Assembly: GCF_021555155.1 (NCBI RefSeq)
Contig: NZ_JAKGBU010000026.1
Coordinates: 10,000 to 59,899, forward strand
Origin: Rhizobium alarense
Lineage (GTDB): Bacteria; Pseudomonadota; Alphaproteobacteria; Rhizobiales; Rhizobiaceae
Reading direction: 5' to 3'
DNA: 49,900 nucleotides
Shown: one piece after another, positions 12,570-18,441 of the stretch
How the letters are laid out: the number at the start of each line of letters is the position of its first letter
Position numbering within the stretch: position 1 is the stretch's first letter
Program-made: the position numbers and the translations under genes
Notes under the pieces: model-generated
What the model was told of the DNA's origin: nothing
The model's input: the letters and a program-made list of their open reading frames with translations, nothing else
Databases searched by the model: none

Positions 12570-12938
12570 ATGGCACAAGGCAGTCTCTACAACGTCGGCG
12601 ACAGCGACGAACGGCCCTGGGGAACCTGGAAAGTCCTGGACATCGGATCCAACCACGTCGTCAAGCGCATCGAGGTGAAGCCCGGCGCACGCCTGTCGCT
12701 GCAGTATCACCATCATCGCGCGGAGCGCTGGACGGCAGTCGCCGGAGAAGGCGTCGCGGAGATCGACGGGGTCAAACACCCGCTGTCGCTCGGCAAAAGC
12801 GTGGACATCCCGCTGCGGGCACAGCACCGGGTGGCCTGCGAGGGCAGCGTGCCGCTGGTCTTCATCGAAGTCCAATACGGCGAACTCCTCGACGAAAATG
12901 ACATCGTACGGCTGAGTGACGACTACAACCGCGCCTGA
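12570..12938 (+). CDS. Cupin, mannose-6-phosphate isomerase type II-like
   Basis: A 122-residue single-domain cupin. PWGTWKVL, the metal-ligand cluster YHHHRAERW and VDIPLRAQHR match the C-terminal isomerase domain of type II mannose-6-phosphate isomerase/GDP-mannose pyrophosphorylase, here without the nucleotidyltransferase part. Such stand-alone domains occur in polysaccharide loci and may supply mannose-6-phosphate or act on another sugar. The ATG at 12570 is preceded by AGAAAGAAG; an in-frame ATG at 12552 lacks a ribosome binding site. A glycosyltransferase-like gene follows 36 bases later. The 197-bp region before it (12373-12569) holds no gene. Confidence 0.78.
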   Translation: MAQGSLYNVGDSDERPWGTWKVLDIGSNHVVKRIEVKPGARLSLQYHHHRAERWTAVAGEGVAEIDGVKHPLSLGKSVDIPLRAQHRVACEGSVPLVFIEVQYGELLDENDIVRLSDDYNRA

Positions 12939-12974
12939 GAAGGCGGAGCGAACCCCAATGAAGCCCGGCCATCG

Positions 12975-14201
12975 ATGACCCGCGTTCTTGCCCTGGCGGC
13001 CTATGATTCCTTCCTGAACGTGGCCAGACTGCTGGGCGACCAGTTTGCGGCGGCAGGTTGCACCGTCGATTATGCGCTGGTGCGCGCCCGTGTTGCAAAG
13101 CAGATCACCGACGCGCAGGTGAAGACCCTGGGCTTCGGTGACGTGCCGCGCTGGACGACCATCGCGGAGCTGGTCGAGTCGGGCCGGCTCGCCCGTTATG
13201 ACATCGTGCTCGGCATCCTCGAAAACCGGTCGACACGCCGCCTGCTGGACGCACTTCCGCGCGGCTCGGCTGCAAGACCGCTGATCGTCTCGGCGTTTCC
13301 GGGCCTCGTCCTCCGGCACGCCCATGACAGCTTCGCGGCGCGCGCCGGCTGCGACCGGCTCTGGCTCAACTGTCGGCGCGACGTGGAGCGATATCGGGCC
13401 ATGGCCGACAGCATGGGCGGCGACCACGCGGCGGCGCATCTGCTGGGCCTGCCCTCACTGCTTTCGCCCGTGAAGCGGGACGCAAAGGCGGCGGCGACCG
13501 GTCCCGTCGTCTTCTTCGAGCAGGCCGGCATTCCGAAATCGCGGGCAGAGCGGGAATATCTCGCCCACGCCCTGCTGCGGCTCGCCAGAAACAATCCGAC
13601 GCGCCACGTCCTCATAAAACCCCGCATGTCGCGCAACGAGACCTCCCTGCACGTCACGCGCTGGCATCTCGAGGGGCTTCTGCGCGACGAGGCCGCTGCC
13701 GAGGGTTGGCCCGGCAATCTCGAAATCACCCAGGAAAACAGCACAAGCCTGCTGGCGCGCGCCGGTTTCTGCCTGACGATTTCCTCGACGGTCGCCATCG
13801 AGGCAATCCATGCAGGCGTCCCAACAACGATCGTCAGCGACTTCGGCGCGCGGGACGACTACGGCCTGCAGTATTTCTTCGGATCAGGTCTCATACGCTC
13901 ATTTTCCGACATGGACTTCGACACGCCGCCACAGCCCGATGCAGCATGGCTCGCGCATTGCTATTGCGCACCGCAGGATAATATCGGCCGGCTCGTTTCG
14001 GAGGCCGTCGCGGCAAGCCGGCAGCGACAGGCCCTGACCGGACAGGCCGAATCGCAAGCCGAGATGTCCGGCGACATGCGCGCATTCCTTGCCTCCCGTC
14101 ACGGCGAAGAGGCGGTGACCGAACGCTCGCACGAAAGGGACACGGACCTGAAGGGAAGCCTGCTGAAGGTGCTCCGCCGCATTCCCTTCCTACGCGGCTG
14201 A
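12975..14201 (+). CDS. Putative glycosyltransferase, DUF6716-like
   Basis: A 408-residue protein without signal peptide or membrane helix. The N-terminus (RVLALAAYDSFLNVARLLGDQF) looks like the first Rossmann unit of a GT-B fold. The second half has HVLIKPRMS and SLLARAGFCLTISSTVAIEAIHAGVPTTIVSDFG, the kind of donor-site pattern found in capsule and CDP-glycerol-type transferases. I recognise it as resembling the DUF6716 'putative glycosyltransferase' family; the substrate is unknown. It follows the cupin on the same strand and converges on the sialidase operon with 65 bases between stops. No strong ribosome binding site is visible before the ATG. Role in surface glycan assembly is inferred from neighbours. 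Confidence 0.65.
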   Translation: MTRVLALAAYDSFLNVARLLGDQFAAAGCTVDYALVRARVAKQITDAQVKTLGFGDVPRWTTIAELVESGRLARYDIVLGILENRSTRRLLDALPRGSAARPLIVSAFPGLVLRHAHDSFAARAGCDRLWLNCRRDVERYRAMADSMGGDHAAAHLLGLPSLLSPVKRDAKAAATGPVVFFEQAGIPKSRAEREYLAHALLRLARNNPTRHVLIKPRMSRNETSLHVTRWHLEGLLRDEAAAEGWPGNLEITQENSTSLLARAGFCLTISSTVAIEAIHAGVPTTIVSDFGARDDYGLQYFFGSGLIRSFSDMDFDTPPQPDAAWLAHCYCAPQDNIGRLVSEAVAASRQRQALTGQAESQAEMSGDMRAFLASRHGEEAVTERSHERDTDLKGSLLKVLRRIPFLRG

Positions 14202-14266
14202 TTGGCCTGATCAAACCCGCTGCGGCCGGCCCCGTCTTCGCAAGACAGACCGCGGTTCTCCTCCCG

Positions 14267-15826
14267 CTACTGGCTGCAGGCGCCGCTGCCCGGCATCTGG
14301 CCGCGCACGCCTGAAAGCGGCAGCAGCCGGAAGCGGATGCTTTCCTGGTAGGCGCGGAAGGCCAGATCCGGCCCCTTGTTGTCGCCCGCCTCGAACAGGA
14401 TCCCGATCTCGCGCCGCGGTTCGTCGTAGACGGGCGCGGAATAACCCGAACTTCCAGGCCAGACCGGTTCGAACGCGATCGCGGCCCTGGCGGTCCCCAG
14501 AGCGCAGCCCCGCCGCGTACCCGGCTCCGGCTGCCCGTTCTCGAGGAAGAGCTTCACGGACGAGAGATTGCTGCGCAGATCGACATCCGTGCCCTTCTTG
14601 CGCTGCCGGATCGGTCCCTGATCGACGTTCACCAGGTTGAAATGGACGGCATAGGGCGGGTTCGCGTCCCAGATGCCGACGATCGACCCCTGAGCGGCGG
14701 CATCCGGGATCGGCGCGTCCGCGATCGGGGCATCCGCCGTCCAGGTCAGGCCGCCGTCGCGGCTGATCGAGAAGAGCCGCTCCTTCGCATCGTCGTCACG
14801 ATGGCGGAGCGTCATGAGCAGCGTGTCACCGCCCATCCAGGCGATCTGGCGTTCGCTGCCGAGGCGGATAGCACCCGTGTCGCCGCAACCAAACGTCTTG
14901 CCGCCGTCGTCGCTGTAGACGCCGAACGGGATCGACGGGAACACGATCCTGGCCGAGTCCTTGTGCGGAAAGGCCACCGCATTGCCCGGTCCGACACGAA
15001 CATCCGCATCGAAGAGGGTCTTGAGCGCACTCTGTTCCGCCTTCAGCGCGTCACCGGCCACCCCGATCAGGTCGGCGAGCTGCAGCAGATTGGCCGCAAG
15101 CGCCTTCGGCCCGCGCGTGTTTTGACGGATGAATTGCAGCGCCTCGCTCGCGGCCGGTGCCATCCTGCGATCGTCCGCAAGCAGTGGCGAAATCGCCTTG
15201 CGCACGGCAGGGTTGCGAACGAGCCGATCCGCGCAGGCGTTGAGGAGTTGCGAATGGATGCGCCGAGGCGGAGCCCAGTGCCGTCCGCCATCATCACTGG
15301 ACGTTATGAAGAACCGGTCCTTCGCATCGCCACGAAAGCGGTTGCGTGCGGAATTCTCGCAGATTTTCTTGCCGTCGCAGGCGTTTTCGAGATTGTAGCG
15401 CACCGTGAACATGAGCACGAGCCGACGGCCGACCGCGACGAGACTCTGCGCGCCGGCGCGCACCAGGCGCCGCTCCGGGGCAACCACGGCGAAATCCGGA
15501 TCATAGATCGGCGATGCCTTGTCGCTCATCTCCCAGCCGAGCCGGTCGGCGTCGACGATAACCACTTCTTTGGACCAGCGCTGGCCGGGCCCGGCGATCC
15601 GGGCGACGAGGTCGATATTGCCGTCATCGGCACACGGCCGCTCGTCGAAGATACCGCGACGACGCTGCGCCACGGCCACATAGCTGTCACCGACCATCGC
15701 AAGGCTCGGTATGCGATAACAGAACTCCTTGTTCCGCTTGAAGACGATGGGGGCATCGTCGGCGGCCCAGACCGCGGAAACCAGGAAAGCAGACACCAAC
15801 GCCAACGCAAGAGCGACTACACGCAT
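14267..15826 (-). CDS. Secreted sialidase-like (BNR/Asp-box) protein
   Basis: A 519-residue protein with a clear signal peptide (MRVVALALALVSAFLVSAVWA, cut near residue 21). YRIP at 37-40 is the sialidase F/Y-RIP motif that carries one active-site arginine. Three Asp-boxes follow: SDDGGRHW (about 176), SDDGGKTF (about 303) and SRDGGLTW (about 353). This is a six-bladed propeller of the exo-alpha-sialidase type. Between the first and second boxes lies a helical stretch of about 90 residues (from QLLNACADRLV to LFDADVRVG) not usual for compact bacterial sialidases. AAGGAGA precedes the ATG. The gene is third in a minus-strand operon after a polysialyltransferase-like gene, suggesting trimming or remodelling of a sialic-acid-like glycan outside the cytoplasm. 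Activity and substrate are unproven. Confidence 0.75.
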   Translation of the reverse strand: MRVVALALALVSAFLVSAVWAADDAPIVFKRNKEFCYRIPSLAMVGDSYVAVAQRRRGIFDERPCADDGNIDLVARIAGPGQRWSKEVVIVDADRLGWEMSDKASPIYDPDFAVVAPERRLVRAGAQSLVAVGRRLVLMFTVRYNLENACDGKKICENSARNRFRGDAKDRFFITSSDDGGRHWAPPRRIHSQLLNACADRLVRNPAVRKAISPLLADDRRMAPAASEALQFIRQNTRGPKALAANLLQLADLIGVAGDALKAEQSALKTLFDADVRVGPGNAVAFPHKDSARIVFPSIPFGVYSDDGGKTFGCGDTGAIRLGSERQIAWMGGDTLLMTLRHRDDDAKERLFSISRDGGLTWTADAPIADAPIPDAAAQGSIVGIWDANPPYAVHFNLVNVDQGPIRQRKKGTDVDLRSNLSSVKLFLENGQPEPGTRRGCALGTARAAIAFEPVWPGSSGYSAPVYDEPRREIGILFEAGDNKGPDLAFRAYQESIRFRLLPLSGVRGQMPGSGACSQ

Positions 15827-15868
15827 CGCAATCTCCTTGTCAGATGCGGACCGAAGTGGCCGGCTGGT

Positions 15869-17383
15869 CTATTTCTTGCCGCGCGGCTTGCCGAAGCGGC
15901 CGAGCGCCGTCATCCCGTTGCGTAGCGCAGTCGGACTCGTCTGTCGACGGACGCCGCGCCAAATATCCTGTGCAAGCCGTCCGGTCATCCGCCACGCCTG
16001 TGTGCCCCTTCCCGACAGGAGCAGTCGCAGGGCGAGGCCCGCTTGCGGCCGGGCGCCAAGCAGATCCTCGTCGGTCGCCCCGGCGAGATAGAGTTTCGTC
16101 GCGCGACCGCGGAAGCCGGTGCCCCGAATGTTGTCGAGGCTCGACGAATGGCTGCCGAACAGCAGCGCCAGCGTCTCGTCGCTGGCGGGAGCAGCCAGCC
16201 CGTTTGCTAGAGAGACCTTGCTCTTGAATTTCGCCGGCTGCATCGCGAAACCGAGGAGGAAATGGCCTGCCTTCACCATATCGTCGTAGACGTGACGGGC
16301 CGCGATCTTGCGATAGGCGGCCTGCAACTCGGCCGCCGACGTGGACGCCAGCAGCGCGCGGCTCTCGCTCGCATTCATGTCCGGGATCAGGTGCTCGGCG
16401 AGGAAGAGCGGAATGCGGTTGGAATTCTCGAAAGGGGCCAGCCTGCGGTAGACGTCGCGGCAGCCGAACTGCAGCACCGGGACGCCGAGCACGTCCTTGA
16501 GGAAGAACAGCGAGGTCGAGAAAATGCCGACCGCCAGCACGACGTTTTCGGGTCCGGCAAGGTCTTCCACCTCGTCGCTCCCCTGAAGCTCCTCGACGGC
16601 GAGAGCCGGAAAACGCTTGCGCAGTCCGGCCAGAATACTCTGCGAGGAGAAATACTTCATGCGGGGATGCGGCTTGAAGGCCACCCGTTCGATGAAAGCC
16701 GGCCATTGGAAGTCCGCGGGGAAGGCCGACAGCCAGAGCTTGATCTCGTCCGCCTGCGACATCATGCCGGAATGCTCGAAGCACTGTCCGACCAGCAGTG
16801 CCGTTGCAGGCGCATGCCCCTGTCCCATCGCGGCCTTCGCAGCCGGGAAGAGACCGGCGCAGTCGATGCGATGCGTCCGCGCGCCCACGTCGAGGCCGAA
16901 ATACATCGACGGCTCAGCGATGAAATCGAGATGATAGGCGTCGGTCAGCCGGTGGATGATGTCGTCGGTGAACGTTGCCCGCGGCGGACTGAAGCTCATC
17001 AGGCCGTCGCCGTAATAGTGAAGTTCCGCTCCGGGAAACATGCCGGCAATGCCGAGCGCCGGATAGGCCTGCAGCGACGTCAGATAGACCCGCACGGCGG
17101 ACGAGAAGCCGAGCTTCAGGAATATCGCCGAAACGATCTGCCGGGTATAGGCCGGCTCCGAAGCCGGATGGTACGGCTGGCAGAGATCGTTGAAATAGAC
17201 GATCTCGTCGAAGCTGCCCGAATAGGTCCGCTCCAGGTAGGCCTTCGTCTCGGACGCACGAAGCTCCGGCGCAGACCCCGTGTCGACATAAAAGAGCACC
17301 TTGCGCGCCCGCGGCTCGCCACGCGCGAACTCGGTGCAAACCCTCAGATTCATCCGCGTGGAAGCGACATAGACATAAAGCAT
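15869..17383 (-). CDS. Alpha-2,8-polysialyltransferase-like protein
   Basis: A 504-residue protein resembling the bacterial polysialyltransferase (POST) family. Three hallmarks are visible: an acidic-Gly element YYGDG (about 120-124), the HP motif in KPHPRMKY (about 235-242), and a serine-rich FSTS (about 286-289). In known bacterial sialyltransferases of this type these regions bind CMP-sialic acid. The ATG at 17383 is used because the preceding gene stops one base earlier (TGA-T-ATG) and AGGAAG lies just upstream; longer in-frame extensions run into that gene. The sialidase-like gene follows after 42 bases. No CMP-sialic acid synthesis genes (neuA/B/C type) are present in the window, so the donor may be made elsewhere or be a different nonulosonic acid. 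Confidence 0.65.
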   Translation of the reverse strand: MLYVYVASTRMNLRVCTEFARGEPRARKVLFYVDTGSAPELRASETKAYLERTYSGSFDEIVYFNDLCQPYHPASEPAYTRQIVSAIFLKLGFSSAVRVYLTSLQAYPALGIAGMFPGAELHYYGDGLMSFSPPRATFTDDIIHRLTDAYHLDFIAEPSMYFGLDVGARTHRIDCAGLFPAAKAAMGQGHAPATALLVGQCFEHSGMMSQADEIKLWLSAFPADFQWPAFIERVAFKPHPRMKYFSSQSILAGLRKRFPALAVEELQGSDEVEDLAGPENVVLAVGIFSTSLFFLKDVLGVPVLQFGCRDVYRRLAPFENSNRIPLFLAEHLIPDMNASESRALLASTSAAELQAAYRKIAARHVYDDMVKAGHFLLGFAMQPAKFKSKVSLANGLAAPASDETLALLFGSHSSSLDNIRGTGFRGRATKLYLAGATDEDLLGARPQAGLALRLLLSGRGTQAWRMTGRLAQDIWRGVRRQTSPTALRNGMTALGRFGKPRGKK

Positions 17384-17384
17384 A

Positions 17385-18356
17385 TCAGAACTTCCTGGCG
17401 GACTTCGGGAGATAGCGGCGCAGTCGGAGATGCCGCAGGAATCGCACGTTGCGCTCAACGACGTCGGCAAGCAAGCCGGGGTCGAAATCGGTCCAGATTT
17501 CGCCGGTCAGCGTGTCCAGTCTCCTGTTGACTGCGCGTTCCAACCGCTGGCGGTTGCGGAGGTGGAAGTCGACCAGCGACACGGCCATGATGTAGATCTT
17601 GCGCACGCAGTTGTCCGGCAGGCGGGCGTCATGAGCATAGCGCACGCAGTCCCGGATGGCGCCGAAGATGTCGAGTTGCCGCATGTCGCCGACGGAGCGC
17701 AGCGTCGGGCGCGGCTCGCGCCGATAGTAGATGTTGTTGACCGAGGAGCAGACATAGAAATCCGCTTCCGCATGCATGCGAATGACCGTCAGCCGGTCCT
17801 CGGCCGTATGCAGGTGATCGGCATAGCCGATCTTGCGGTCGCGCAGGAACTTCGCGTCGAAAACGCCCGCCCAGGCAAAGGGATAGTCGACCATGGCTGT
17901 CTTGTCGACAGGTACGAAGCCACTGATCAGGGCGCTGATCGGGATGTTGCAGACCGATTCCGGCGGTTTTCCGAGCTTGCGCAAAGGACCGTTGAACTCG
18001 ATGTGCCCCGAGCGCACGAAAGGCGCCTCGAATTCCTTCGCTTGCTGAATGAGCGCGGAATAGTAGCCCTCGCCGACATAATCGTCCGAATCGAGATAGG
18101 CGATGTAGTCGCCCCTGCTCTCGGCGAACCCCCGGTTGCGGGTCGCCCCGAGGCCTATGTTCTTCTCGTTCTGCAGCACCCGGAACCGGCTGTCGCCGGC
18201 CGTCAGCCGGGTGACGATGTCGAGGGTGCCGTCGGTCGATGCATCGTCGATGAGGATATATTCCGCATCCTCGACATTCTGCAGCTTAAGGGACGCGATG
18301 GTCTCCGGAACGACGGTTTCGACGTTGAAGCAGGGCACGATGACGGAAAAGGGCAT
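17385..18356 (-). CDS. Family 2 glycosyltransferase
   Basis: A 323-residue GT-A type transferase. The start MPFSVIVPCFNVE..VPETIASLK, the DDASTDGT element and the metal/nucleotide-binding YLDSDDYVGEGYY are classic GT2 signatures, all within the first 115 residues. The rest is a variable acceptor domain with no membrane helix, so the enzyme is cytoplasmic or membrane-associated. It is the first gene of the minus-strand glycan operon, with a good promoter about 57-85 bases upstream, and its stop lies one base before the ATG of the polysialyltransferase-like gene. Sugar donor unknown. Confidence 0.88.
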   Translation of the reverse strand: MPFSVIVPCFNVETVVPETIASLKLQNVEDAEYILIDDASTDGTLDIVTRLTAGDSRFRVLQNEKNIGLGATRNRGFAESRGDYIAYLDSDDYVGEGYYSALIQQAKEFEAPFVRSGHIEFNGPLRKLGKPPESVCNIPISALISGFVPVDKTAMVDYPFAWAGVFDAKFLRDRKIGYADHLHTAEDRLTVIRMHAEADFYVCSSVNNIYYRREPRPTLRSVGDMRQLDIFGAIRDCVRYAHDARLPDNCVRKIYIMAVSLVDFHLRNRQRLERAVNRRLDTLTGEIWTDFDPGLLADVVERNVRFLRHLRLRRYLPKSARKF

Positions 18357-18412
18357 GAAAGATTTTCTTCTCGAGGACGTGCGGAAGGGCGACGCCCGTT
18401 CATCAGTGTCTT

Positions 18413-18441
18413 CGTATAAAAAGTGTGGACCGCCTTTTCAA
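18413..18441 (-). promoter_or_regulatory. Sigma-70-type promoter of the glycan operon
   Basis: On the minus strand TTGAAA (18441-18436), a 17-base spacer and TATACG (18418-18413) form a well-spaced promoter. Transcription would start near 18406, about 50 bases before the GT2 ATG. The remaining gap to the hydratase gene (18442-18554) holds only short GC-rich dyads. Confidence 0.6.

What the first reader, a model, noticed from the sequence alone, without database searches (positions are those of the whole stretch)
12570..18441. A compact sialic-acid-like surface glycan locus with its own sialidase
A GT2 transferase, a polysialyltransferase-like protein and a secreted sialidase-like protein form a one-promoter operon, with one base between the first two genes. 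A cupin and a DUF6716-type transferase converge on it. Seen: POST-type motifs (YYGDG, KPHPR, FSTS), and YRIP plus three Asp-boxes with signal peptide. Known: such transferases use CMP-sialic acid, and sialidases cleave it. Inferred: the strain makes and trims a nonulosonic-acid polymer, although no neuABC-type genes are nearby.
Basis: partly seen in the sequence, partly recalled or inferred. Interest (0 to 1): 0.72.

Follow-up and report, generated by a model that had tools for sequence, protein, structure and literature searches.

The report
Split Kdn capsule locus with sialidase
A bacterium, likely of the rhizobium family, carries on two separate contigs genes that would build a surface sugar likely containing the sialic acid Kdn, using transferases that resemble those of Streptomyces loci, plus a sialidase-like protein predicted to be secreted and to trim that sugar.

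Summary
GT2 (17385-18356), a PF07388 transferase (15869-17383) and a GH33-fold protein with a signal peptide (14267-15826) are co-directional; cupin and DUF6716 genes converge on them. A single promoter is unproven.

The missing sugar pathway lies on another contig (C133): a NeuB without SAF domain and a NeuA-HAD fusion, with KpsCS/KpsMT-type genes on the same contig. No NeuC-family (Epimerase_2) match was found. This favours Kdn over Neu5Ac.

Two comparisons tie the halves together. In actinobacteria, 59 of 80 polyST loci hold all five genes (GT2, polyST, DUF6716, NeuA-HAD, NeuB); Streptomyces walls carry Kdn polymers. In all four other family genomes found with this NeuB (5 of 374 with the own one), NeuB, NeuA-HAD and DUF6716 stand side by side; here the only DUF6716 match lies in the window. 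A Kdn capsule is reported from Sinorhizobium fredii.

The sialidase-like protein keeps six residues assigned as the GH33 catalytic set; one distant relative lies about 21 kb from such a module in another genome. That it trims this glycan is inferred. New variant of a known kind; nothing biochemical is shown.

The parts
12570..12938 (+). Cupin of the mannose-6-phosphate isomerase C-terminal type (PF01050)
   Evidence: E 5.2e-31; 54% identical to a cupin lying between NeuB and DUF6716 in G093. Isomerase role inferred
12975..14201 (+). DUF6716 putative glycosyltransferase (PF20471)
   Evidence: E 6.6e-63; only match in the own genome; 42-49% identical relatives stand beside NeuA-HAD in 8 rhizobial loci
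14267..15826 (-). GH33-fold sialidase-like protein with signal peptide
15869..17383 (-). PF07388 (polysialyltransferase family) GT-B transferase
17385..18356 (-). GT2 glycosyltransferase, one base upstream of the transferase gene
   Evidence: PF00535 E 1.7e-30; a GT2 match lies upstream of polyST on the same strand within 1.5 kb in 79 of 80 actinobacterial loci

Best explanation
The window holds the transfer half, and likely the trimming enzyme, of a split gene set that would make a surface glycan containing a nine-carbon nonulosonate, likely Kdn; a NeuB, a NeuA-HAD fusion and capsule-export-type genes lie on another contig of the same genome. Proposed working, step by step: the cupin supplies mannose-6-phosphate (inferred); the SAF-less NeuB condenses it with PEP to Kdn-9-phosphate (inferred); the HAD half of the fusion removes the phosphate and the NeuA half makes CMP-Kdn (inferred from family and domain content); polyST and GT2, with DUF6716, assemble the chain in the cytoplasm (inferred); KpsC/KpsS-type enzymes lay a linker and KpsM/T/E/D-type proteins export it (homology only); the GH33 protein, 42 bases behind polyST and on the same strand, removes Kdn from chain ends in the periplasm or outside, for length control, clearance or release (inferred).
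For: NeuB and NeuA-HAD on C133; no Epimerase_2 match in the genome while 11 of 14 control genomes ring; SAF absent from this NeuB and from three other NeuBs of the module, present in the NeuB that stands beside a NeuC-like gene in G044; five-gene co-occurrence in 59 of 80 actinobacterial loci; NeuB, NeuA-HAD and DUF6716 adjacent in 4 of 4 other family genomes with this NeuB and in the 5 plasmid loci fetched; cupin, DUF6716, NeuB and NeuA-HAD in one locus in G093; capsule-type genes on C133; Kdn capsule of S. fredii and Kdn wall polymers of Streptomyces in print (passages); GH33 residues and fold; of 374 family genomes the two with a sialidase match are both NeuB carriers.
Against: The two halves are on different contigs. 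The fusion's best NCBIfam match is the pseudaminic acid cytidylyltransferase PseF (120.3 bits, cut-off 205.7), and its HAD half is below the Kdn-9-phosphatase cut-off (95.4 against 180). The genome has three further CTP_transf_3 matches (C158, C1, C125) that I did not study. The human synthase makes both Kdn and Neu5Ac (passage), and a Serratia neuB-dependent capsule held Kdn with some Neu5Ac (passages). The transferase lacks the first acid of the D/E-D/E-G motif. No sialidase match in the 80 actinobacterial loci or around the other rhizobial modules; the G497 match is weak (E 3.9e-5).
Confidence: 0.55

Rival explanations
1. The glycan contains another nonulosonate (Neu5Ac by a 9-phosphate route, or a pseudaminic-type sugar), not Kdn.
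For: PseF is the best NCBIfam match of the NeuA-HAD fusion and NeuB_NnaB of the synthase, both below cut-off; the NeuA half matches CMP-Neu5Ac synthetases of solved structure (6ifd, E 9.7e-32); the human synthase makes both Neu5Ac and Kdn (passage).
Against: No Epimerase_2 (NeuC) match; SAF-less NeuB and fused HAD phosphatase, shared with Streptomyces loci and Sinorhizobium, two groups with reported Kdn polymers (passages). PseB/PseC/PseG-type genes were not searched for.
Confidence: 0.2
2. The sialidase-like enzyme scavenges or strips glycans of other organisms and has nothing to do with the strain's own polymer.
For: Most known GH33 sialidases act on foreign glycans (general knowledge); no sialidase match in the 80 actinobacterial loci or near the other rhizobial modules examined.
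Against: It sits 42 bases behind polyST on the same strand; the only other family genome of 374 with a match, G497, also carries the NeuB module, about 21 kb away; chance for that is 4 in 373.
Confidence: 0.3
3. The window transferases use another donor (such as CMP-Kdo or a nucleotide hexose) and the C133 NeuB and NeuA-HAD serve a different glycan.
For: The two gene sets are on separate contigs; GT-B folds match widely, and NeuC-type epimerases and other glycosyltransferases also score in the structural comparison; the PF07388 score is only just over cut-off.
Against: DUF6716 stands beside NeuA-HAD in 8 of 8 rhizobial loci examined and on the same strand within 2.5 kb in 65 of 80 actinobacterial loci, and the own genome's only DUF6716 match is in the window; the transferase model's best match is a CMP-Neu5Ac-using polysialyltransferase.
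Confidence: 0.15

Closest known systems
Streptomyces loci with GT2, polyST, DUF6716, NeuA-HAD and NeuB (Kdn teichulosonic acid cell-wall polymer)
   Same: Same five gene families, GT2 directly before polyST, SAF-less NeuB, NeuA-HAD fusion.
   Different: Here split over two contigs in an alphaproteobacterium, identities of about 25-49%, with a sialidase-like gene and a cupin that gave no match in those loci; attachment to peptidoglycan not tested. That the Streptomyces locus is the teichulosonic region is fitted from a table and recall; the 2014 paper was seen only as a reference.
Sinorhizobium/Ensifer/Rhizobium NeuB, NeuA-HAD, DUF6716 modules on megaplasmids; Kdn capsule of S. fredii
   Same: NeuB 86-94%, NeuA-HAD 62-68%, DUF6716 42-49% identical; capsule-type genes close by in the annotated case.
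   Different: There the three genes are adjacent and no relative of the window polyST or sialidase was found around them; here DUF6716 is apart, with GT2, polyST and sialidase.
Mannheimia haemolytica polysialyltransferase (PF07388, solved structure)
   Same: GT-B fold; counterparts of base E153 (D126), H291 (H239) and S339/T340 (S289/T290).
   Different: No detectable sequence match in the PDB search; first acid of the D/E-D/E-G motif is Gly; 13% identity in the fold alignment; polymerase activity unknown.
GH33 sialidases and fungal Kdnases
   Different: Three relatives at 38-46% identity found; a stretch of predicted helices at about 190-272 that the G497 relative lacks; substrate unknown.
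G044 locus (polyST, NeuC-like, SAF-bearing NeuB, NeuA, DUF6716, capsule genes)
   Same: Same family of bacteria; PF07388 and DUF6716 genes adjacent.
   Different: Has a NeuC-like gene and a NeuB with SAF, and NeuA without HAD; its polyST scores 122.8 bits against PF07388, a different branch.
Serratia marcescens KL1/KL2 Kdn capsule
   Same: Gram-negative capsule with Kdn depending on neuB (passages).
   Different: Its NeuB carries an isomerase domain; no comparison of its genes was made here.

Membership tests
PF07388 polysialyltransferase family | Score over the curated cut-off | tested here: met
   26.0 bits against 23.3
PF07388 polysialyltransferase family | Catalytic base with following Gly, HP motif, S-T phosphate contact | tested here: met
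   D126-G127, H239-P240, S289-T290 invariant in 15 aligned; roles from passages of PMC5517516
Bacterial polysialyltransferase proper | Both acids of the D/E-D/E-G motif | tested here: not met
   Gly125 here; Ala, Ser or Gly in the actinobacterial relatives aligned. Hence not filed as a polysialyltransferase
Bacterial polysialyltransferase proper | Makes a nonulosonate polymer from a CMP sugar | not testable with these tools
   Needs enzyme assay
GH33 sialidase | Sialidase beta-propeller fold with Asp-boxes | tested here: met
GH33 sialidase | Arginine triad, nucleophilic Tyr with Glu, acid/base Asp | tested here: met
   R38, R341, R418, Y462, E325, D67 identical in 5 of 5 aligned. R38, E325 and R341 align to P. 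gingivalis sialidase; naming of the full set is recalled
GH33 sialidase | Pfam BNR_2 over curated cut-off | tested here: inconclusive
   26.7 bits against 31.4
Kdnase | Preference for Kdn over Neu5Ac | not testable with these tools
   Fungal Kdnases are among the fold matches but so are Neu5Ac sialidases, with higher Z
Kdn biosynthesis | NeuB-type synthase and nonulosonate cytidylyltransferase present | tested here: met
   C133 NeuB E 4.5e-56 and NeuA-HAD
Kdn biosynthesis | No ManNAc-forming UDP-GlcNAc 2-epimerase | tested here: met
   No Epimerase_2 match in the own genome, 99.08% complete
Kdn biosynthesis | NCBIfam Kdn-9-phosphatase equivalog (NF058599) over cut-off | tested here: not met
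   95.4 bits against 180; hence not filed as that equivalog
Streptomyces teichulosonic acid locus | GT2, polyST, DUF6716, NeuA-HAD and NeuB in the genome | tested here: met
   Window plus C133
Streptomyces teichulosonic acid locus | The five genes in one locus | tested here: not met
   Split over contigs C121 and C133; hence not filed as such a locus
ABC-dependent (group 2/3-type) capsule | KpsC/KpsS-type proteins, ABC transporter pair, export protein | tested here: met
   On C133: PF05159 in two proteins, ABC2_membrane, ABC_tran and Poly_export over cut-offs; a KpsE-like protein hits Wzz below cut-off, 21.4 against 25.5. That they export this glycan is inferred

The most novel reading that the evidence does not exclude
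A self-trimming capsule: a Gram-negative bacterium combines the Kdn-polymer transferase pair otherwise found in Streptomyces-type loci with the rhizobial Kdn-activation module and ABC-type capsule export, and has placed a dedicated Kdn-sialidase in the transferase operon to set chain length or clear stalled polymer, as periplasmic hydrolases do in exopolysaccharide operons.
Probability: 0.3. Interest if true: 0.75.

Novelty: new variant of a known kind. Interest (0 to 1): 0.55.

Why it matters
It proposes Kdn synthesis genes for rhizobia, where a Kdn capsule was described chemically in 1998 (seen as a reference and in citing passages), and gives DUF6716, a family named in no paper of the library searched, a testable role as partner in nonulosonate glycan assembly in both Streptomyces and rhizobia. 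A capsule gene string that carries its own sialidase would be an unusual way to control a sialic-acid-type coat, and the enzyme might be a bacterial Kdnase of use as a reagent.

Tried and rejected
A classical Neu5Ac polysialic-acid locus: less likely, because no NeuC-family match is in the genome and NeuB lacks SAF, in contrast to the relative G044, which has a NeuC-like gene, a SAF-bearing NeuB and a strongly scoring polyST. Close relatives of the polyST outside actinobacteria: the first genome-contig scan gave 24 pattern matches and no relative; with the alignment, the 80 loci kept of 584 confirmed were all actinobacterial by their record titles; of 374 family genomes two gave weak matches besides the own one, and none of 8 query proteins matched around those at E 1e-3; of the plasmid records only one, Nonomuraea, matched. 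The polyST against PDB sequences: nothing meaningful. The 369-aa protein beside DUF6716 in G093 as a polyST: not supported. Defence link: no PADLOC match for four window proteins. E. coli NeuE as a relative of DUF6716: read about (passages), not tested. Promoter scan: nothing above chance. Class-wide DUF6716 search: 2 of 385, the second very weak (E 5.5e-4). Surroundings of the three closest sialidase relatives were not fetched. Sialidase in the plasmid collection: no match.
Full report
WHAT IS THERE. The five genes are as described: cupin 12570-12938 (+) and DUF6716 12975-14201 (+), and converging on them GT2 17385-18356 (-), PF07388 transferase 15869-17383 (-) and a sialidase-like protein with signal peptide 14267-15826 (-). 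GT2 and transferase are one base apart, transferase and sialidase 42 bases. Flanking frames look like housekeeping genes by eye. A promoter scan gave nothing above chance, so one transcript is plausible but not shown.

THE MISSING PATHWAY. The genome (5.2 Mb, 201 contigs, 99.08% complete) has one NeuB match, on contig C133, directly followed by a NeuA fused to a HAD phosphatase domain. CTP_transf_3 has four matches in the genome; the three others (C158, C1, C125) were not studied. The HAD half is nearest in the PDB to 3mmz (E 2e-38) and also matches 3e81 (E 2.2e-22), but is below NCBIfam's Kdn-9-phosphatase cut-off, and the fusion's best NCBIfam match is PseF, below cut-off too. There is no Epimerase_2 (NeuC) match, with 11 of 14 control genomes ringing. 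NeuB shows no SAF domain, nor do two Streptomyces NeuBs and one Sinorhizobium NeuB of the same module, while the NeuB beside a NeuC-like gene in G044 has one. In the meningococcal enzyme that domain's Arg314 is described as placing the N-acetyl group of ManNAc (passages of PMC6795526). Together these favour Kdn, made from mannose-6-phosphate, without proving it; the human synthase makes both sugars (same paper). The window cupin could supply mannose-6-phosphate (inferred); G497 has a GlcNAc 2-epimerase-family gene beside its module. C133 also carries two KpsC/KpsS-type proteins and KpsM-, KpsT-, KpsE- and KpsD-like genes, about 14-23 kb from NeuB.

WHY WINDOW AND C133 BELONG TOGETHER. First, actinobacteria. 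Of 80 polyST loci (the best of 584 confirmed), tblastn at 1e-5 finds GT2 in 79, DUF6716 in 71, NeuA-HAD in 67 and NeuB in 61, and all five in 59; a GT2 match lies upstream of polyST on the same strand within 1.5 kb in 79; DUF6716 and NeuA-HAD are on one strand within 2.5 kb in 65. Some loci are cut by contig ends. Streptomyces walls carry a galactose-Kdn polymer, teichulosonic acid (passages of PMC7831098 and PMC11481543). A table in PMC2267785 (passage) lists SCO4878-SCO4881 as glycosyltransferase, conserved hypothetical, transferase and polysaccharide biosynthesis protein, which fits this order; that this is the teichulosonic region of Ostash 2014 is recalled, and only the reference was seen.

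Second, rhizobia. Of 374 family genomes, 5 have this NeuB at E up to 1e-90. In the other four, NeuB (86-92%), NeuA-HAD (65-67%) and DUF6716 (42-49%) stand side by side, as they do in the five plasmid loci fetched of 12 records that match DUF6716; one of these five is the same record as one of the four, so 8 distinct loci in all. In the own genome the only DUF6716 match is in the window. Third, G093, of another family in the order, has a cupin (54%), DUF6716 (35%), NeuB (67%) and NeuA-HAD (55%) in one locus. A Kdn-containing capsule is reported from Sinorhizobium fredii (passages of PMC9000132 and PMC7845648; the 1998 paper is not held).

DOES THE SIALIDASE BELONG? Of the same 374 genomes 2 match it: the own one, and G497 at E 3.9e-5. 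The G497 protein (439 aa, PF13088 E 1.5e-15, the six residues kept) lies about 21 kb from G497's own NeuB. Both are among the five NeuB carriers; setting the own genome aside, chance gives 4 in 373. That is suggestive, not strong: the match is weak, and other GH33 proteins may be missed by this query. No sialidase match was found in the 80 actinobacterial loci, around the other rhizobial modules fetched, in the plasmid collection or in the 100 other relatives.

RARITY. polyST by profile: 1 of 101 relatives and 3 of 374 family genomes, two of them weak. DUF6716: 3 of 101 relatives and 2 of 385 in the class, the second weak; nearest named relatives are Sinorhizobium, Ensifer, Mesorhizobium, Stappia, Roseibium and Labrenzia.

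VERDICT. Shown: gene content, order, families, predicted folds, conserved residues, co-occurrence. Inferred: Kdn as the sugar, polymer formation, export as a capsule, trimming. The ten searches of the paper library listed no paper that I recognised from titles and abstract openings as describing this arrangement; the library lacks most subscription papers.

Noticed in passing
L002 7102-8073 (own genome, contig C133): A 323-aa frame follows NeuA-HAD; its N-terminal HKTGTT motif recalls sulfotransferases (by eye), but no Pfam or NCBIfam match was found.
   Followed up: partly
L104 (G044 C19:20001-40000): A relative has DUF6716, a strongly scoring PF07388 protein, a NeuC-like gene, SAF-bearing NeuB and NeuA in a row, beside capsule-type genes; 13 Sinorhizobium plasmid records match its polyST.
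   Followed up: partly
L106 13314-14984 and L111 14232-17291 (S. meliloti ml28 pSymB): Near the NeuB module: a protein with CST-I and GT8 matches, and about 12 kb away a 1019-aa protein with PF07388 and HAD-type matches.
   Followed up: no
L002 9347-10285 against L106-L110: Very uneven divergence in one module: NeuB 89-94% identical, NeuA-HAD 62-68%, DUF6716 43-49%. Unexplained.
   Followed up: no
L103 14644-15753 (G093): A 369-aa frame overlapping the DUF6716 frame has no Pfam match and no convincing profile match to polyST.
   Followed up: partly
L123 13187-14404 and 17641-18870 (G497): A GlcNAc 2-epimerase-family gene (PF07221, E 1.2e-84) follows the module, and a second DUF6716 gene lies about 5 kb on.
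   Followed up: partly
L125 10743-12230 (own genome, contig C133): The KpsS-type protein also weakly matches DUF6716 (E 7.4e-4, below cut-off), hinting at a distant relation of the two families.
   Followed up: no
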